Assembly: GCF_900880625.1 (NCBI RefSeq)
Contig: NZ_CAAHFB010000001.1
Span: forward strand, 1,116,001 to 1,180,000
Direction: 5' to 3'
Origin: Halorhabdus rudnickae
GTDB taxonomy: Archaea > Halobacteriota > Halobacteria > Halobacteriales > Haloarculaceae
Length of the DNA: 64,000 nt
Shown here piece by piece: positions 1,780-9,070 of this stretch. How positions within the stretch are numbered: the first letter of the stretch is position 1; each line of letters starts with the position of its first letter. The notes beneath the pieces are model-generated. The model worked only from the letters and a program-made list of their open reading frames with translations. It was not told the DNA's origin and did no database searches. The position numbers and the translations under genes were made by a program.

Positions 1780-3552
1780 ATGGAAAACGATCTCAATTGG
1801 GCGATCGGCGGAGAGGCCGGCGACGGGATCGATTCGACGGGCAAGATCTTCGCCCGGGCACTCTCACGGGCCGGTCGCCACGTTTTCACCTCCAAGGACT
1901 TCGCCTCGCGCATCCGGGGCGGGTACACGGCCTACAAGGTCCGAACCTCGGTCGACCGGGTCGAAAGTGTCGTCGATCGGCTCGACGTGCTGATCGCACT
2001 GACCGAGCGGACCATCGACGAGAACCTGGATGAACTCCGAGAGGGAAGCGTCATCATTTACGACGGCGAGCAGACGACGATGCAAGACATCGAAGTGCCC
2101 GACGGGACCATCGGCCTCGAAGTCCCGCTGAACAGCCTCGCCGAGGAGGCCGGCGGGGCGATCATGCGCAACGTCGTCGCGTTGGGGGCCGCGAGTGAAG
2201 TCACCGGTTTCCCCGTCGAATACCTCGATGAGGCACTGGTCAAACGCTTCGGCGAGAAGGGCGAGGCCATCGTCGCAAACAATCGCGAGGCGGCCCGCCT
2301 GGGCCGGGATTACGTCCACGAGGAGACCGACTGCGGCGGCCAGTTCAGCCTAGAGACCACTGACGCCGACTACGTCCTGCTCAACGGCGACGAGGCCATC
2401 GGTATGGCTGCCCTCGCAGCCGGTTGTCGCTTCTACGCGGGATATCCGATCACGCCCGCGACGGACATCATGGAGTACCTCACCGGCCGGATCGAGGACT
2501 TCGGCGGCGCGGTCGTCCAGGCCGAAGACGAGCTGTCTGCGATCAACATGGCACTGGGCGCAGCCCGAGCCGGCGCGCGGGCGATGACCGGCACGTCCGG
2601 GCCGGGGATCGATCTGATGAGCGAGACGTTCGGTCTCGTCGCCACCAGCGAGACACCCCTCGTGATCGCCAACGTGATGCGCTCGGGGCCATCGACGGGT
2701 ATGCCAACGAAACAGGAGCAAGGGGATCTGAACGCGATGCTCTATGGCGGGCACGGCGAAATCCCGCGGTTCGTCCTCGCACCGACGACGATCGGGGAGT
2801 GTTTCGACCGGACCATCGAGGCGTTCAACCTCGCCGAGAAGTATCAGCTTCCGGTATACCTCACAGCGGACCTCTCGCTTGCGGTCTCCGAACAGACCTA
2901 CCCGCCCGAGCGCTTCGACATGGACAGTGTCGAGATCGACCGCGGGAACGTCGTCGATCCCGACGAAGTCGAGGAGTGGCTCGACGAGAAGGGGCGCTTC
3001 CGGGCGCACGCGGCAACCGATGACGGGATCAGCCCGCGAGCGCTCCCGGGGACGCCCGAGGCAGCACACATGACGACCGGCCTCGAACACGACGAACTCG
3101 GTCGCCGGACCGAAGAAGAAGACATCCGCGTCGAACAGGTACAGAAACGCCAGCGGAAAGTCGAGACCGCTCGCGAACGAGAAGACTTCGGCTACCGGGA
3201 ATTCGGCGATTCCGAAGCCGAAACGCTCGTGCTTTCCTGGGGGTCGAACGAAGGTGCGATGCGCGAGGCCCTGGGGATGCTCGATGAGCGGGGCGTCGAC
3301 GTTCGATTCCTCTCGGTGCCGTATATCTACCCGCGACCCGACCTGACCGCGGAAGTCGAAGACAGCGAGGACGTCATCGTCGTCGAGTGTAACGCGACGG
3401 GGCAGTTCGCGGACTTGATCGAGCACGACACGCTGACGCGCGTCCAGCGCGTCACGAAGTATACGGGCGTCCGGTTCAAGGCCGACGAACTCGCCGACGA
3501 GATCGAATCGGCGATCGCTGGCGAGGCTCCGCCACAGGAGGTCCAACGATGA
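1780..3552 (+). CDS. korA: 2-oxoacid:ferredoxin oxidoreductase, alpha subunit (fused gamma/alpha)
   Basis: Catalyses ferredoxin-dependent oxidative decarboxylation of a 2-oxoacid, probably 2-oxoglutarate in the TCA cycle, together with KorB. The 590-aa protein begins with a gamma-like domain (residues 1-180; G-G-E-A-G-D-G-I-D-S-T-G-K). It continues with the pyrimidine-binding alpha domain from about residue 200 (G-Y-P-I-T-P-A-T-D-I-M-E and the T-G-T-S-G-P-G-I-D-L-M motif) and ends in a transketolase C-terminal-like domain. The length of about 590 aa fits Kor rather than the longer haloarchaeal pyruvate enzyme. The stop overlaps the korB ATG by 4 nt, indicating translational coupling. A T-rich stretch near 1746-1753, about 30 bp upstream, is a likely promoter. 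Confidence 0.93.
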   Translation: MENDLNWAIGGEAGDGIDSTGKIFARALSRAGRHVFTSKDFASRIRGGYTAYKVRTSVDRVESVVDRLDVLIALTERTIDENLDELREGSVIIYDGEQTTMQDIEVPDGTIGLEVPLNSLAEEAGGAIMRNVVALGAASEVTGFPVEYLDEALVKRFGEKGEAIVANNREAARLGRDYVHEETDCGGQFSLETTDADYVLLNGDEAIGMAALAAGCRFYAGYPITPATDIMEYLTGRIEDFGGAVVQAEDELSAINMALGAARAGARAMTGTSGPGIDLMSETFGLVATSETPLVIANVMRSGPSTGMPTKQEQGDLNAMLYGGHGEIPRFVLAPTTIGECFDRTIEAFNLAEKYQLPVYLTADLSLAVSEQTYPPERFDMDSVEIDRGNVVDPDEVEEWLDEKGRFRAHAATDDGISPRALPGTPEAAHMTTGLEHDELGRRTEEEDIRVEQVQKRQRKVETAREREDFGYREFGDSEAETLVLSWGSNEGAMREALGMLDERGVDVRFLSVPYIYPRPDLTAEVEDSEDVIVVECNATGQFADLIEHDTLTRVQRVTKYTGVRFKADELADEIESAIAGEAPPQEVQR

Positions 3553-4412
3553 GTTCTGAGACACACTTCACGGAGTTCAAATCCGACAAGCAACCGACGT
3601 GGTGTCCCGGCTGCGGTGACTTCGGGACGATGAACGGCATGATGAAAGCCCTCGCCGAGACGGGCAACGACCCGGACAACACGTTCGTCGTCGCCGGGAT
3701 CGGCTGTTCGGGCAAGATCGGGACGTACATGCACAGCTACGCGCTGCACGGCGTTCACGGTCGGGCGCTCCCGGTCGGGACGGGTGTGAAACTCGCCAAT
3801 CCCGACCTGGAAGTGATGGTCGCTGGCGGGGACGGCGACGGCTACTCGATCGGCGTCGGGCACTTCATCCACGCCGTGCGGCGGAACATCGACATCACCT
3901 ACGTCGTGATGGACAACCGGATTTACGGCCTGACGAAGGGGCAGGCCTCCCCGACCTCGCAGCAGGGCTTTGAGACCGCCACCTCGCCGGACGGCACGGT
4001 CGAGCCGCCGGTCAACCCACAGGCACTCGCGCTGGCCGCCGGCGGGACCTTCATCGCCCAGTCGTTCTCCTCGGACTCCCAACGGCACACCCAGCTCGTC
4101 AAGCAAGCCATCGAGCACGACGGGTTCGGGTTCGTGAACGTGTTCTCGCCCTGCGTGACGTTCAACGACGTCGACACCTACGACTACTTCCGGGATGCGA
4201 TCGTCGACCTCGAGGAGACCGACCACGACCCCGGCAACTACCAGGCCGCCCGCGACAAGATCATGGACCCAAGTACCGAGCACATCGGCGTGCTCTACGA
4301 GAACGAGGCCAGCGTTCCCTACAGCGAGCGCGAGGGGATCGACGAGAACATGGCCGACATTCCCGATGGCGCACCCGAACGGGCCGATCGGCTGGTGCGA
4401 GAGTTCTACTGA
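3549..4412 (+). CDS. korB: 2-oxoacid:ferredoxin oxidoreductase, beta subunit
   Basis: This thiamine-diphosphate-binding subunit partners KorA. The 287-aa protein has the N-terminal W-C-P-G-C-G-D-F-G motif, a further conserved cysteine in G-I-G-C-S-G-K-I-G, and the TPP/Mg signature G-G-D-G-D-G-Y-S-I-G followed by N-R-I-Y-G-L-T-K-G-Q. These three motifs are diagnostic for archaeal 2-oxoacid:ferredoxin oxidoreductase beta chains, which also hold a 4Fe-4S cluster. The ATG overlaps the korA stop (ATGA). The next 130 bp hold no gene before an insertion element, so the korAB operon probably ends here. Confidence 0.94.
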   Translation: MSSETHFTEFKSDKQPTWCPGCGDFGTMNGMMKALAETGNDPDNTFVVAGIGCSGKIGTYMHSYALHGVHGRALPVGTGVKLANPDLEVMVAGGDGDGYSIGVGHFIHAVRRNIDITYVVMDNRIYGLTKGQASPTSQQGFETATSPDGTVEPPVNPQALALAAGGTFIAQSFSSDSQRHTQLVKQAIEHDGFGFVNVFSPCVTFNDVDTYDYFRDAIVDLEETDHDPGNYQAARDKIMDPSTEHIGVLYENEASVPYSEREGIDENMADIPDGAPERADRLVREFY

Positions 4413-4538: not shown

Positions 4539-4546
4539 TTCAAGAC
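4539..4546. repeat. 8-bp target-site duplication, left copy
   Basis: TTCAAGAC immediately precedes the left inverted repeat of the IS6-type element. An identical copy immediately follows its right end. Confidence 0.92.
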
Positions 4547-5243
4547 GGTAGTGTTCAGATAAGCTGGTTCCATGCAAATGCGAAAGATCTGAGCCAGTCG
4601 TCAGCTGTTTCCGCAGCGGCGTGACTGAAACAGTTTGAAAACGAAGATGTTCTACGTTTTACCTCACGAAAGACACGTTCGACGCTGTTCCGATTTCCAG
4701 CGCGTTCGTATCTGAAATCGAGGCCGTGTCGGTTGCAAGCGTCTTTCAAGGAGTGCGACCCATCGATGAGAAACATCGCGTCGTCAAGATCGTGTTTCTC
4801 GCGGAGTTCGCGAAAGAACGCGTGAGCAAGAGCTGAATTTGTAGTTGGTTCAAGCGTTGTATGGAGCAATTCGTTTGTATCGGGATCGACGGCAGCGTAC
4901 AGCCAGTATCGCTCGTTGTCGAGTCGGATCACGGTTTCGTCAACCGCAACGTGATCCGGGCTCCGTCCAGTTTCGGGCTGTAGATCGGCCTTGTGAACTC
5001 AGTTGTGGACGGTTGAACGAGCGCGTTGGACACCGAATACCTCAAGAATTGAAACAGTATTCGAAAGCGATAGTCCAGCAAGATGCAACTGAATACTGAG
5101 CTTCATCAAAAATCGCGGTGTCGCTTCTCGCTCCACAAACTCTAAGTCGATCTGGTCGATACTACCGCTGAGGCGTGCGTTTTCGGGCATAGACACTTTG
5201 AAAACGCCACGCCTCATCCTTCAATCCTTATCTGAACACTACC
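4547..5243 (-). mobile_element. IS6-type insertion sequence with perfect ends and target duplication
   Basis: The 697-bp element is bounded by 17-bp terminal inverted repeats, GGTAGTGTTCAGATAAG at 4547-4563 and its reverse complement at 5227-5243. It is flanked by identical 8-bp direct repeats TTCAAGAC. The 8-bp duplication and the size fit the IS6 family (ISH14/ISH15-like haloarchaeal group). It carries one transposase frame on the minus strand, interrupted by a single in-frame stop. It inserted between korB and the GNAT pair. Perfect ends and target repeats indicate a recent insertion. Confidence 0.93.
4555..5190 (-). pseudogene. IS6-family DDE transposase interrupted by one nonsense codon
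   Basis: The frame begins at MPENARLSGSIDQIDLEF (an earlier in-frame start exists at 5217) and would encode about 211 aa. An in-frame TGA at 4999-5001 splits it after R-S-T-V-H-N; reading continues in the same frame with V-H-K-A-D-L-Q. Family members known to me have a tryptophan here (HNWVHK), so a TGG-to-TGA transition explains the break. The DDE residues are intact downstream: D in A-V-D-E-T, D in F-L-I-D-G-S-H and E in R-N-S-V-E-R-V-F. The stop codon lies inside the left inverted repeat. The copy is probably not autonomous but could be mobilised in trans. Confidence 0.9.
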
Positions 5244-5251
5244 TTCAAGAC
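5244..5251. repeat. 8-bp target-site duplication, right copy
   Basis: TTCAAGAC directly follows the right inverted repeat at 5243, identical to 4539-4546. No substitution has accumulated between the two copies. Confidence 0.92.
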
Positions 5252-5329
5252 AGTGCAAACTCATATGGGGGTATGGAGCTTAGAACGTGGGCCTCAGACC
5301 GAATACGGACTGATTGTGTCTGAGTGTTA

Positions 5330-5340
5330 ACTATTATATG
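5330..5340 (+). promoter_or_regulatory. TATA box for the candidate antitoxin-toxin operon
   Basis: The sequence ACTATTATATG is centred about 30 bp upstream of the ATG at 5366, with no Shine-Dalgarno in between. This is the standard arrangement for a leaderless haloarchaeal transcript and supports 5366 rather than the in-frame GTG at 5324 as the start. Confidence 0.55.
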
Positions 5341-5365
5341 CCTGCATGACCGACCTAAACTTACG

Positions 5366-5506
5366 ATGGCGTACCCACAGTCCGTTCCGTCTCTCACCGA
5401 GGACGAGTTCGACCATCTCCGTAACGAGATGGAAGAATTCGAAGCTCCGGAGGAGATGGAAGATGACCTCGCACGGCACCGCGAGGCACTCCAAGAAGAC
5501 ACTTAA
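5366..5506 (+). CDS. Small acidic protein, candidate antitoxin of a GNAT toxin
   Basis: A 46-aa, strongly acidic protein (many D/E, few K/R) predicted to be mostly helical. The start M-A-Y-P-Q-S-V-P was chosen because a TATA box lies 30 bp upstream. It ends 37 bp before a GNAT acetyltransferase whose architecture resembles TacT/AtaT toxins, so the pair looks like a short antitoxin followed by its toxin. It does not show the ribbon-helix-helix fold of known TacA antitoxins and is only half their length. I do not recognise a family. The antitoxin role is inferred from gene order, size and charge. Confidence 0.55.
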   Translation: MAYPQSVPSLTEDEFDHLRNEMEEFEAPEEMEDDLARHREALQEDT

Positions 5507-5543
5507 TTAACCTTTTTATCGATCTGTTGCTTCCTCATCCCTA

Positions 5544-6083
5544 GTGACTTCCAACTTCGAGAAAATTCACCCACGGGTGGAGATCCATCCATACGAGTTG
5601 GGTGAATCCCTCCCGAAATTTGACTGTGGCAAGGACTGGTTTAACGACTTTATCAACACAGATGAAGTCGAGAATTATCAGCGAGCTCGACTCGGGAAAA
5701 CCAGGTTGGTGTACTTCGACGGTGAGTTTGCCGCGTTCTTCTGCGTATCACCGAACTCGTTACGAGACGACGACTACAACGAAGAAGAAATGGATGGCGC
5801 AAGCGAGTTGTACGAGGGGCCATTCGATATGCCCGCCAGACTTCTCGGCCATCTCGCTGTTGATGAGCGATTCAAAGACGAAGGACTCGGTGAGTACCTC
5901 GTAAAACACATTCTCGCGGACACACAAACCTCAGACACGCCATTCAGACTGGTTATTCTCCACTCCCACAAGGATGTGATCGAATTCTATCAAAAATATG
6001 GGTTCGTCAAAGCGTTCCCCCACGGTGGAGGGAACCAGAATACCACGCTCATGTTCTACGATCTCGGCCGCCTGACTGACTGA
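5544..6083 (+). CDS. GNAT-family N-acetyltransferase, TacT/AtaT toxin-like
   Basis: A 179-aa single-domain GNAT protein. The N-terminal K-F-D-C-G-K-D-W-F-N-D-F motif matches the F-x-C-G-x-x-x-L-x-x-(F/W)-L block of GNAT toxins that acetylate aminoacyl-tRNA. The core has L-L-G-H-L-A-V-D-E-R-F and the acetyl-CoA loop K-D-E-G-L-G, with K where R/Q is usual. It closes with F-Y-Q-K-Y-G-F near the C-terminus. The start is GTG at 5544; no better ATG is near. It follows the small acidic gene on the same strand and lies beside an IS element, a typical setting for a toxin-antitoxin pair. A generic housekeeping acetyltransferase is the alternative. Confidence 0.78.
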   Translation: MTSNFEKIHPRVEIHPYELGESLPKFDCGKDWFNDFINTDEVENYQRARLGKTRLVYFDGEFAAFFCVSPNSLRDDDYNEEEMDGASELYEGPFDMPARLLGHLAVDERFKDEGLGEYLVKHILADTQTSDTPFRLVILHSHKDVIEFYQKYGFVKAFPHGGGNQNTTLMFYDLGRLTD

Positions 6084-6110: not shown

Positions 6111-6374
6111 TCAAAACGCTTCGCTGATCACTCGTTCACGATACGCTCGGTTCTGTGCGGCTTTGTAGAAGACTGGCTCGTAGTATCTCTTGTAGGGTGG
6201 CGCGGTCGCGCGTTCCATCTCATCCGTGACTGCCCGGACCCATAACCCTCTGGAAGTGTCGTCTACAGGTTGTTGAGGTAGACCAATGCATCCAACGAAC
6301 CACGGAGTCACTGATTTTTCTCCACCATAGATCGGATCGGACCGCCCAAGGTAGTCTACTGCTTCAACGTACAC
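6111..6374 (-). CDS. Hypothetical protein, possibly a 5'-truncated gene
   Basis: An 87-aa frame on the minus strand, converging on the GNAT gene. It is rich in aromatic residues (Y-K-R-Y-Y-E-P-V-F-Y-K-A-A near the C-terminus) and matches no family I recognise. The only start is GTG at 6374. Protein-like sequence (V-Q-N-R-I-H-P-T-I-S-C-P-E-A-E) continues upstream in the same frame to a TGA near 6418, so the gene may have lost its 5' end. Base composition is lower in GC than the flanking core genes, in keeping with the accessory patch around it. Confidence 0.4.
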   Translation of the reverse strand: MYVEAVDYLGRSDPIYGGEKSVTPWFVGCIGLPQQPVDDTSRGLWVRAVTDEMERATAPPYKRYYEPVFYKAAQNRAYRERVISEAF

Positions 6375-6435
6375 CTCGGCTTCGGGACAGCTGATAGTAG
6401 GATGAATTCGGTTCTGGACTGTTCATCTCGAAACG

Positions 6436-7761
6436 TTACTGAGCCGACGGACGATCGGCAATTGCGTCCCGTCGGGCACGTCCAACAGTGTACCCTGCCA
6501 TTCCGATCGCAGCCGTGAGGAGCGCCCAGGCAGCGAGCAGTCCCGGGGCGTACATCGCTCCGTAGCTCCCGTATGGTGCCCATCCGAGCGTAAGTAACAG
6601 TGGCGAGAGCACGATCACGACCGCGAGAAGCCAGCGTACCGGCCGTCGCTCGGCAAGCGCGAGCGGGACGAACAGCGTCGGGGCAGCGACCGCGACCACA
6701 CTTCCGTATCCAATCGCGATCGGGCCGAGCGAACCGGCGACGAGCGGTGCGGCAAGCAACGCGAGCACGACGCCGACAGCGGCCGACCGGACGATCCATC
6801 TGGCGTCGAGATCGAACCCGAATCGTCCCGCAAGCAGGCCGTACTGGAGTCCAACCAGGACGAGCGAGAGCGCGACCAACGGGGCCAGCAGTGTCGCGCT
6901 CATCACGAGCAAGAACGTAGCCCCGTCCAGACCAACAGTAACAGCGGCTGCAGCCGCCAGCCCGGCGATGGCGACGACGGACAGAGCCGCCGTTTTCGTC
7001 GACACGTCGGCAACCGTCCCAGCCAGACGATCACGGAACGCGAGACAAGCCCCGAGCACGATCGTCGGGATGATCGCCGTCCCCGGAATGGCGGCCCCTT
7101 TCAGCTGAGCGATGTCGACGCCGATCCCGAAGTGGGACGCGACGCTGGTGAGGATGCCATCGTCCTGGCCGAACGTCAGATACCAGCCCGGAGAGATAGT
7201 TCGAGCGAACGTGTCACCGTACTCCCCGTCGATGGCAAGGGCCGTTTCGTTCAGTCGGTACTGCTCGGGTGCCCGAATGAGCTGTGTTCCCTCGGGGCCA
7301 GTGACGACGACTCGGTCGACGTTGACGCCGTACCAGCGTCCCTGCTCCCCCTGGGAGTGGAAGTAATCGACGATCAGGACGCCGCCGGCACTCCGGTGGC
7401 CCATTCTCGGAACGTCATACCCAATCGTGACGGCGTCCGCGCTCGCGTTCACCGAGAGATTTCGCGGTGTCGCTTCGTCCCGGTGGCCCCGGAGTGCGTC
7501 CTTGGCCGCCGACTGCACGGACTGGGAGTTGATGCTCGCGTTCGCGCGGAGATCGAGCCGTCCCGTCCAGTGTCCGCGACCGTTCTCGTCGAGGGCGATC
7601 GTGATCGTCGAGGACTCGACATCGCTCCCGTCTACCACGTCCCCGGAGCAGCCTTCACAGAGTGGTTGGGGAGGTGGCCGTGCTGCAGCGATCGTGACCG
7701 TCGCCAGCAAGACGACCAGGAGGGCTCCAGCGACCACAGCCCGATCACAGCGGGGACACAT
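6436..7761 (-). CDS. Haloarchaeal polytopic membrane protein of unknown function
   Basis: A 441-aa protein. The start M-C-P-R-C-D-R-A-V-V was chosen because it is followed directly by a hydrophobic signal/anchor (V-V-A-G-A-L-L-V-V-L-L-A-T-V); the frame is open further upstream but not protein-like. Residues 35-210 form a predicted extracellular domain with C-E-G-C and many D/S/T residues. About seven transmembrane segments follow to the C-terminus (residues ~215-420). The layout of an exported domain followed by a membrane bundle recurs in uncharacterised haloarchaeal proteins. No catalytic motif is visible. It is divergent from the small membrane protein gene at 7861. Confidence 0.7.
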   Translation of the reverse strand: MCPRCDRAVVAGALLVVLLATVTIAAARPPPQPLCEGCSGDVVDGSDVESSTITIALDENGRGHWTGRLDLRANASINSQSVQSAAKDALRGHRDEATPRNLSVNASADAVTIGYDVPRMGHRSAGGVLIVDYFHSQGEQGRWYGVNVDRVVVTGPEGTQLIRAPEQYRLNETALAIDGEYGDTFARTISPGWYLTFGQDDGILTSVASHFGIGVDIAQLKGAAIPGTAIIPTIVLGACLAFRDRLAGTVADVSTKTAALSVVAIAGLAAAAAVTVGLDGATFLLVMSATLLAPLVALSLVLVGLQYGLLAGRFGFDLDARWIVRSAAVGVVLALLAAPLVAGSLGPIAIGYGSVVAVAAPTLFVPLALAERRPVRWLLAVVIVLSPLLLTLGWAPYGSYGAMYAPGLLAAWALLTAAIGMAGYTVGRARRDAIADRPSAQ

Positions 7762-7860
7762 ACGGTGCAAAGAACGGCACACTGACAAAAAGATACGGGT
7801 CGAGCTGTCGCCATAGCAGACCCACGGTAGATTCATCAGAGCGGTGGTGGAACGGCGACC

Positions 7861-8061
7861 ATGGACAACGAACGAGAGCGTCAACTCGTCGTCGCACTCG
7901 TCGTGGTCGGTGTCGTTCTGTCGTTCGCCTACAGCCTCCTGATCGCAGGACAGATACTGCTCTGGCTGTCCGTCGTCTGGACAATATCCTTGTTCTACCT
8001 GCTCTGGCGATTCGTCCGTGCACACGAGCGGATCGCCGATGCTCTCGAAAACGGGGAATGA
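7861..8061 (+). CDS. Small two-helix membrane protein
   Basis: A 66-aa protein with a charged N-terminus (M-D-N-E-R-E-R-Q), two closely spaced hydrophobic helices (residues 8-29 and 31-52) and a charged C-terminal tail (R-A-H-E-R-I-A-D-A-L-E-N-G-E). Clean hydrophobic segments and acidic ends make it a convincing gene despite its size. It sits in the 330-bp interval between the divergent membrane-protein gene and the 3' end of fen1. Function unknown. Confidence 0.7.
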   Translation: MDNERERQLVVALVVVGVVLSFAYSLLIAGQILLWLSVVWTISLFYLLWRFVRAHERIADALENGE

Positions 8062-8089
8062 AAAACCGGACCGAAGCGTCGGTACGGAT

Positions 8090-9070
8090 TCACGCCCAGT
8101 CGTCCAGCCCGGTCTGGACCACCGACGATTCGATACGCTCGAACCCACGCTCGACTTCGCTCGCATCGACTTCCCACTCGTCGGTGACGAACGACCGGGC
8201 GGCATCGAGATCGGGGTGGAGTGACGTCTCGAAAGAGTAGTCGTCGGTGACGGCGGGATCGAGGAACAGCTCCCGGATGCGATCGGCGTTCTCGACGTAG
8301 ACGTCTTCGGCCTCGCTGACCCCCCAGAGGTCGCCGTGCTCGCGGATGGCTTTCACCGCGGTCTTGGGGCCGTATCCGTGGACGCCCTCGTTGAAGTCCG
8401 TCCCGCAGAGCAGCGCCACGTCGACGAGTTGTTCCCAGGAGAGATCGTGTGCGTCCAGCGTCGCCTGGAAGTCCATCAGTTCCGGGTCGCCCTTGCTGGT
8501 GAGTTGCCGGAGTGTGCGAGGGGCGCCAAAGAGGAGGGCGTCGTAATCCTCGGTGCCGACGTAATCCACGTCACCGCTTCGAGCCATGTGGGCCGCCTGG
8601 CCTTCGCCCTCCGCCGGCGCGTCGACGACGGGAACGTCCAGCAACTCGAGCAGTTCCCGCGTGGTCTCCAGAATTACATCGGTAAGGTGCTGGGTCCGGG
8701 ACTCCAGGCGAGCGACCCTGACAGCGTCGCCTTCCTCGCGGGCCGCCTCGAGGTCGTCCTCGTATTGCTCGCGCTGCTCACGGCGGCGCTTTACCTCGTC
8801 GTCCTTGAGATCCGTGACAGCACCGTCGAAGACGAACACGGGCGTGACCTCGTGTTCGAAGAACTTCGGCAGGCCCTGGACGACACCGACGAGATTGGCG
8901 ACTTCCTGGCCGTCGCTCGTCGTGTAGACCTCGTCGTTCGTCCACTTGACTGTCGTCGTGAGGTAGCGATACAGCCAGTTGTGGGCGTCGACGGCCACGA
9001 TCGACCCCGCCAGATCGTCGAAAGCGATCGACTCGATGGCCGCGATATCCCGGAGATCGGCGTTTCCCAT
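8090..9070 (-). CDS. fen: Flap structure-specific endonuclease FEN-1
   Basis: Removes 5' flaps during Okazaki-fragment maturation and base-excision repair. The 326-aa protein begins [10 protein letters not shown] and has the XPG N-region ([12 protein letters not shown]; later P-V-F-V-F-D-G). The I-region carries the acidic metal ligands ([10 protein letters not shown] and D-Y-D-A-L-L-F-G), and a helix-hairpin-helix follows ([17 protein letters not shown]). The C-terminal Q-T-G-L-D-D-W is a PCNA-interacting peptide. Length is typical of archaeal FEN-1. It is followed on the same strand by a GNAT gene only 9 bp from its start. Confidence 0.95.

What the first reader, a model, noticed from the sequence alone, without database searches (positions are those of the whole stretch)
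5366..6083. Candidate archaeal GNAT toxin-antitoxin pair with a 46-aa non-RHH antitoxin
The GNAT protein carries the F-x-C-G N-terminal block and the core layout of tRNA-acetylating toxins (TacT/AtaT). It is preceded by a tiny acidic gene behind a clear TATA box. Known partners are ribbon-helix-helix proteins about twice as long, so this would be a different antitoxin type. The locus lies in a low-GC patch beside a fresh IS.
Basis: partly seen in the sequence, partly recalled or inferred. Interest (0 to 1): 0.58.

Follow-up and report, generated by a model that had tools for sequence, protein, structure and literature searches.

The report
Archaeal acetyltransferase toxin with mini-antitoxin
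This salt-loving archaeon carries a probable two-gene poison-and-antidote module whose poison is kin to bacterial enzymes that block protein synthesis, while the antidote is a 46-residue protein with no sign of the DNA-binding half that the usual bacterial antidotes have.

Summary
A 46-aa acidic gene (5366-5506) lies 37 nt before a 179-aa GNAT gene (5544-6083); both are under purifying selection. The GNAT is of the TacT/AtaT toxin type: its family profile ranks 16 GNAT toxin sequences first in the PDB, and Y149 aligns with AtaT Y144. All 7 haloarchaeal copies have the small gene. A phylum search found 56 more GNAT places; 51 are preceded by a comparable small gene. Small genes outlive broken or lost GNATs, while intact GNATs without one are almost absent, as expected of toxin and antidote. 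The small proteins match no family searched. The haloarchaeal ones align to the toxin-gripping C-tail of RHH antitoxins (TacA/AtaR); for the others this is ambiguous. Best reading: a type II-like GNAT toxin-antitoxin module with an RHH-less mini-antitoxin. Toxicity, neutralisation and tRNA acetylation are inferred; predicted models do not show docking. A 2022 paper (PMC9177977) had noticed short ORFs without DNA-binding domains before related GNATs and left them open. New variant of a known kind.

The parts
5320..5342 (+). conserved promoter block with TATA box at 5332-5342; its distance to the ATG suggests a leaderless or nearly leaderless antitoxin transcript
   Evidence: conserved in 4 of 4 aligned copies (window, L002, L003, L013), no palindrome conserved there; leaderless start is inference
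5366..5506 (+). 46-aa acidic protein, predicted antitoxin
   Evidence: start and sequence conserved in 7 of 7 haloarchaeal loci, dN/dS 0.11-0.25 in the four closest
5510..5518 (+). T-rich box (ACCTTTTTA) 26 nt before the GNAT start codon; either a second promoter for the toxin or a termination/attenuation signal
   Evidence: ACCTTTTTA or ACTTTTTTA in 4 of 4 aligned copies; function is inference
5544..6083 (+). 179-aa GNAT of the TacT/AtaT type, predicted toxin; GTG start conserved; Y149 aligned with AtaT Y144
4547..5243 (-). insertion sequence, 697 bp, 17-bp perfect ends, 8-bp target duplication (4539-4546 and 5244-5251), transposase frame with one stop codon
   Evidence: an 81.6% identical copy lies in L013 where the record names an IS6 family transposase
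6114..6488 (-). C-terminal remnant of a PLD-like nuclease gene that accompanies the pair
   Evidence: 60.8% over 130 aa to residues 243-371 of the 372-aa protein of L013

Best explanation
The pair is an inserted, mobile type II-like toxin-antitoxin module. The GNAT is the toxin; by kinship with TacT/AtaT it would acetylate the amino group of aminoacyl-tRNAs and so stop translation. The 46-aa acidic protein, made first from its own promoter, is the antitoxin; it would bind the toxin directly as two short helices joined at a proline turn, in the manner of the C-terminal tail of TacA/AtaR antitoxins, and keep it inactive. Because it shows no RHH DNA-binding half, the module would not repress its own promoter through the antitoxin; dose would be set by promoter strength, the toxin's GTG start and the T-rich intergenic box. 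SHOWN here: gene pairing, real coding genes, toxin-family kinship, retention asymmetry, insertion at a site that is empty in two genus mates. INFERRED: toxicity, neutralisation, tRNA target, tail-like binding, lack of autorepression.
For: Toxin family: the A1 profile against the PDB ranks 16 GNAT toxin sequences first, full length, E 1e-12 to 5e-8; other GNATs follow from 3.4e-7 over residues 99-166 only (which entries are toxins is taken from the titles and, for some, recall). Y149 aligns with AtaT Y144, the residue mutated in 6gtq. Tree of 68 GNATs: the 7 haloarchaeal rows join the 16 RHH-linked TacT rows at 100/97 support. Pairing: small gene directly upstream in 7 of 7 haloarchaeal loci (window, L002, L003, L009, L010, L011, L013) and in 51 of 56 further places of the phylum search (48 by pattern, 3 more on a wider look). 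Asymmetry: of 65 small-gene places in 48 of 359 genomes, 20 had no GNAT place and were fetched; 5 of these keep only a truncated GNAT and 15 none detectable, while the 5 GNATs without the small gene include one with a stop inside, two weak outliers, and two preceded by a module-like or 48-aa ORF. Binding mode: the haloarchaeal small proteins match the TacA C-tail in hhalign, score 15.99 with 0 of 200 column shuffles as high; 15.1-16.8 on the tail against at most 10.9 for 129 decoy windows and 9.0 for the reversed profile. A 46-aa piece of AtaR is crystallised on AtaT (6gtq_C). Insertion: empty site in G001 and G003.
Against: No experiment. Both read-through models leave the small part at low confidence (pLDDT blocks 37-66), so docking is not shown. 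hhalign probabilities are low (under 10% for the haloarchaeal set). The enlarged methanogen profile matches the RHH helix A of TacA better (20.5) than the C-tail (15.4), and its reversed profile still scores 13.6 on the tail, so its tail reading is weak. Haloarchaeal and methanogen small proteins are not significantly alike by themselves (18 of 200 and 7 of 150 shuffles as high). Relatives of the haloarchaeal small protein also occur away from the GNAT family (7 places in 6 of 391 genomes at E 1e-12 to 1e-6), so the small protein may have other jobs. VIA-align ranks N-terminal acetyltransferases level with the toxins.
Confidence: 0.66

Rival explanations
1. The small protein is a degenerate or minimal RHH protein (the size of CopG, recalled) that still dimerises and acts as antitoxin and repressor, so the module is an ordinary GNAT-RHH system in disguise.
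For: Length and the helix-turn-helix layout (H12-23, H29-41) fit an RHH core; methanogen small proteins have an alternating IELGLVL stretch and match TacA helix A at 20.5.
Against: Haloarchaeal proteins have prolines at residues 4, 6 or 8 and hardly any basic residue where the DNA-binding ribbon would lie; they score only 9.6-9.8 on the TacA RHH half; the methanogen match is out of RHH register (small 25-47 on TacA 13-35); no Pfam RHH match at E up to 1 for the window protein or up to 10 for 3 methanogen proteins; no conserved operator palindrome.
Confidence: 0.15
2. The GNAT is not a toxin but a protein or small-molecule acetyltransferase, and the small acidic protein is its substrate, adaptor or activator.
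For: No toxicity was measured; PMC9177977 leaves open that GNATs outside its toxin clade evolved other functions; VIA-align ranks human Naa60 and Naa50 level with the toxins.
Against: Toxins lead in sequence over the whole domain; no NCBIfam enzyme family reaches its cut-off (best 21.7 bits against 250); patchy presence (5 of 391 haloarchaeal genomes), plasmid copy and insertion suit a mobile module; small genes survive broken GNATs but almost never the reverse, which an adaptor would not explain.
Confidence: 0.13
3. The pair is a toxin-antitoxin module, but the small protein acts otherwise than by tail-like sequestration, for example by handing the toxin to a protease (as SocA does) or by binding at a different site; its likeness to the TacA tail is convergence of short amphipathic helices.
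For: Low hhalign probabilities, ambiguous methanogen result and a reversed control at 13.6; no confident docking.
Against: Haloarchaeal likeness beats shuffles, decoys and reversal at the same tail columns; the closest toxins are held by just such a tail (titles).
Confidence: 0.3

Closest known systems
TacAT / AtaRT / KacAT type II modules (GNAT toxin with DUF1778/TacA1, PF08681, RHH antitoxin)
   Same: Toxin family over the full length including the FDCG block and the active-site Tyr; antitoxin gene first; the antitoxin C-tail alone is known to bind the toxin (PDB titles 6gtq, 7ak8, 9ils).
   Different: Antitoxin about half as long (46 aa against 88-99 aa in the clean cases), no PF08681 match and no RHH signature; a 37-nt gap between the genes.
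DUF4065-GNAT pairs (VcaA-VcaT, PMC9177977)
   Same: GNAT toxin of the same broad family with a non-DUF1778 antitoxin.
   Different: The small proteins here have no Pfam match at all, hence no DUF4065 match, and are far shorter (size of DUF4065 proteins recalled).
Unnamed GNATs outside the 'true TA clade' with short divergent ORFs (PMC9177977, discussion passage read)
   Same: Two-gene, TA-like loci with a short first ORF lacking a DNA-binding domain; very likely the same phenomenon.
   Different: The passages read name no family, sequence or archaeal distribution for those ORFs and leave their role open; which loci they were could not be checked here.

Membership tests
TacT/AtaT-type GNAT toxins | similarity over the full domain, not only the acetyl-CoA motif | tested here: met
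   16 toxin sequences first, from residue 12-24 to 155-175; the single sequence also ranks 7f37, 6g96 and 9ilr first, by narrower margins
TacT/AtaT-type GNAT toxins | active-site tyrosine (AtaT Y144) | tested here: met
   Y149 invariant in the 6 rows of A1 and aligned with Y144 of AtaT by counting along the printed alignment
TacT/AtaT-type GNAT toxins | growth arrest by acetylating aminoacyl-tRNA | not testable with these tools
   needs expression and LC/MS
TacT/AtaT-type GNAT toxins | lies in the published 'true TA clade' with DUF1778 partners | tested here: inconclusive
   haloarchaeal rows are sister to, not inside, the RHH-linked group (100/97); the tree is unrooted and has 68 rows, none from the published tree by name
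TacA1/DUF1778 antitoxins (PF08681) | match to PF08681 with its RHH DNA-binding half | tested here: not met
   no match for the small proteins, while TacA controls L005 and L102 score 85.5 and 81.9 bits
TacA1/DUF1778 antitoxins (PF08681) | C-terminal toxin-binding tail | tested here: inconclusive
   haloarchaeal set above shuffles, decoys and reversal but HHalign probability under 10%; methanogen set ambiguous
type II toxin-antitoxin modules | two-gene unit kept together across lineages and mobile | tested here: met
   7 of 7 haloarchaeal and 51 of 56 further places; megaplasmid copy; empty site in 2 of the 5 genus mates compared
type II toxin-antitoxin modules | protein antitoxin neutralises the toxin by binding | not testable with these tools
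   read-through models give no confident docking; needs a rescue assay and pull-down
type II toxin-antitoxin modules | autorepression by the antitoxin at an operator | tested here: inconclusive
   no conserved palindrome in the promoter of four copies and no DNA-binding family match; a bench test decides
RimI and other characterised acetyltransferase families of NCBIfam | reaches the curated cut-off of such a family | tested here: not met
   best 21.7 bits against a cut-off of 250 (PaiA); rimI 15.7 against 86.4

The most novel reading that the evidence does not exclude
Archaea (haloarchaea and many methanogens) run GNAT toxins with stand-alone 'grip-only' antitoxins of about 46-50 residues: the toxin-binding tail as a whole gene, without the DNA-binding half. 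Such modules would do without conditional cooperativity, and would show either the state before an RHH half was joined to the tail or its repeated loss. Copies that persist without a GNAT would then act as anti-addiction proteins.
Probability: 0.38. Interest if true: 0.7.

Novelty: new variant of a known kind. Interest (0 to 1): 0.56.

Why it matters
If right, it gives GNATs outside the published 'true TA clade' the antitoxins that PMC9177977 left open, makes archaeal GNAT toxins a large testable class, and offers a natural test of whether a type II module needs a DNA-binding antitoxin at all: same toxin fold, antitoxin cut down to its grip. Haloferax volcanii is a tractable host in which toxicity, rescue and autoregulation can be tried directly.

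Tried and rejected
Rejected: the longer reading of the small gene from GTG 5324 (60 aa), because in the relatives the protein begins at the conserved ATG and the stretch before it is conserved as promoter. Rejected as relatives: generic GNATs that the profile found in other haloarchaea (32 of 391 genomes, E 9e-7 to 9e-5, mostly the acetyl-CoA motif only).

Led nowhere: viral carriers of the small gene (21 pattern matches, none confirmed; 18 and 5 DNA matches, read, none followed by a GNAT-like ORF by eye); PDB relatives of the small families (nothing convincing). The structure jobs did not place the small protein; the second alignment held many TacT rows, so that model's likeness to TacT is partly built in. 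A slip ('-glob 0' gave global mode) makes its scores unusable; repeated in local mode. Against my reading: the larger methanogen set aligned best to the RHH half of TacA, not to the tail.

Rows dropped before counts: in the tree 14 ids on my drop list (truncated, weak or duplicate; one of them, L007, was not in the set) and repeat TacA loci L131-L133; fragments L148 and L149 dropped from the TacA profiles. In one search a text pattern decided 'small gene present' (53 of 62 loci; L011 added by eye). The output was cut in its middle, so loci around L090-L109 were judged. For one search one of the seven further small-gene places (the second in G181) was not fetched.

Full report
What is there. 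The window is part of a chromosome-sized contig of a haloarchaeon (G000, contig C1, 1116001-1180000; 'haloarchaeal' follows from the relatives named). Between a gene that I read as a 2-oxoacid oxidoreductase subunit (3549-4412) and a gene for a probable membrane protein (6436-8205; both by eye) lies an AT-richer island (GC 0.48-0.53 against about 0.64). It holds, in order: an IS (4547-5243) with perfect 17-bp ends and a perfect 8-bp target duplication, its transposase frame broken by one stop; the 46-aa gene (5366-5506); the GNAT gene (5544-6083); and a C-terminal remnant of a PLD-like nuclease gene on the other strand (6114-6488, 60.8% over 130 aa to the full gene on the Halobacterium sp. GN101 megaplasmid). 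In two genus mates (G001, G003) the flanks are joined with 75-101 bp between them; in three others compared (G004, G005, G006) no downstream match was seen nearby. So the module was very probably inserted.

Both genes are real. The ATG start, the TATTATATGCC box before it and a T-rich box between the genes are conserved in four copies whose DNA is 80-83% identical to the window. dN/dS is 0.11-0.25 for the small gene and 0.05-0.09 for the GNAT over six pairs each.

The GNAT is of the toxin kind. Pfam sees only a generic GNAT and no NCBIfam family reaches its cut-off. The profile of six haloarchaeal copies, however, puts 16 GNAT toxin sequences at the head of its 43 PDB matches, aligned over the whole domain; the first other GNAT comes at 3.4e-7 and only over the acetyl-CoA motif. 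Tyr149 falls on AtaT Y144. Foldseek on a model of the L002 pair lists toxin chains in ranks 1-12, while VIA-align shows N-terminal acetyltransferases level with them, so the sequence is the better discriminator. In a 68-row tree the seven haloarchaeal GNATs form one group (100/97) that joins the group of 16 RHH-linked TacT rows (98/91) at 100/97.

The pair is conserved, and far beyond haloarchaea. Searches over the class find the GNAT over its full length in 5 of 391 genomes, the window's own among them; named records add Halovenus salina (L002) and a Halobacterium plasmid (L013). All seven loci, down to about 30% GNAT identity, have a 42-48-aa gene directly upstream that starts MA[YFL]P[QK]. 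The profile over the phylum found the GNAT in 48 of 392 genomes: 57 places, one of them the window. Of the 56 other places 48 have, by pattern, a small gene like MAKPIELGLxLEGEDAxxF, and three more were found on a wider look: one cut by a contig end, one about 200 nt upstream, one before a frame-broken GNAT. The five left are L097 (a 127-aa ORF whose end resembles the module), L111 (a divergent 48-aa ORF), L125 (a stop inside) and L127 and L130 (weak matches).

The reverse is not symmetric. The methanogen small-gene profile gave 65 places in 48 of 359 genomes. Twenty had no GNAT place (some in genomes where one search reported none); fetched and checked, 5 keep a truncated GNAT and 15 none detectable, of which two are partial small-gene matches. 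In haloarchaea the small-protein profile also finds seven places in six of 391 genomes at E 1e-12 to 1e-6 away from the GNAT family (six of the seven loci read, no GNAT-like ORF seen by eye). Antitoxins that outlive their toxins, with almost no intact toxin living without its antitoxin, is the pattern expected of a toxin-antitoxin pair rather than of an enzyme with its adaptor. It remains circumstantial.

What the small protein is. No match in Pfam, NCBIfam, PADLOC or PHROGs for the window protein, nor in Pfam, NCBIfam and PHROGs for the methanogen ones tried (one weak Pfam match at 0.086). Bacterial relatives of the GNAT mostly have TacA-type antitoxins of about 88-99 aa upstream, and 59 of 61 viral loci fetched with TacT queries have a TacA-like ORF. 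The haloarchaeal small proteins align, by hhalign in local mode, to the start of the TacA tail (L-T-E-D-E-F on L-S-x-x-D-x): 15.99 with 0 of 200 column shuffles as high; 17.16 with 0 of 150 when six orphan relatives' set and a larger TacA set are used; at most 10.9 among 129 decoy windows cut from GNAT alignments. The methanogen proteins hit the same tail columns at 15.4, but score 20.5 on the RHH helix A, and their reversed profile reaches 13.6 on the tail, so for them the tail reading is not established. A natural parallel exists: a 46-residue piece of AtaR crystallised on AtaT (6gtq_C; title). Two AlphaFold models of the read-through L002 pair leave the small part at pLDDT 37-66 with two helices (12-23 and 29-41 in the second), while the second folds most of the GNAT at 80-95; docking is not shown.

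What is in print. PMC9177977 (section 16 and passages read) finds short ORFs without DNA-binding domains before GNATs outside its toxin clade and says that these GNATs form pairs with unidentified antitoxins or have other functions; it demonstrates a DUF4065 partner in another clade. PMC2701414 (passages read) lists GNAT with RHH and with Xre partners. Searches for archaeal, methanogen or haloarchaeal GNAT toxin-antitoxin work (listings only) showed no paper on this pair; the library lacks most subscription journals and all preprints.

Verdict. A type II-like GNAT toxin-antitoxin module with an RHH-less mini-antitoxin, the haloarchaeal branch of a wide archaeal arrangement. Kinship and pairing are shown; toxicity, neutralisation, target and mode of binding are inferred.

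Noticed in passing
L048, L049 (and L050-L053): Haloarchaeal relatives of the 46-aa protein occur without a GNAT; in L048 and L049 the next ORF on the same strand is a 75-aa protein (GDRVRIDIPDE...), perhaps a different partner for the same antitoxin module (no Pfam match).
   Followed up: partly
window 6114-6488; L013:6573-7688: A PLD-like nuclease gene accompanies the pair: full length on the Halobacterium sp. GN101 megaplasmid, a C-terminal remnant in the window; DNA likeness to L002 and L013 runs past the pair to about window 6410.
   Followed up: partly
window 4547-5243: IS with intact ends and target duplication but a nonsense codon in its transposase: recently moved, yet this copy may not make a full transposase.
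   Followed up: yes
L006:4754-4963; L103:1244-1468: In Paenibacillus solanacearum and on a Piscinibacter plasmid, distant GNAT relatives are preceded by 69- and 74-aa ORFs, and one search finds no TacA1 match in that genome or record: possible further antitoxin types in bacteria.
   Followed up: no
window 5544-6083: The GNAT matches phrog_1758 ('acetyltransferase', a family of viral proteins) over nearly its full length, E 9.3e-22, so viruses may carry this enzyme type.
   Followed up: no
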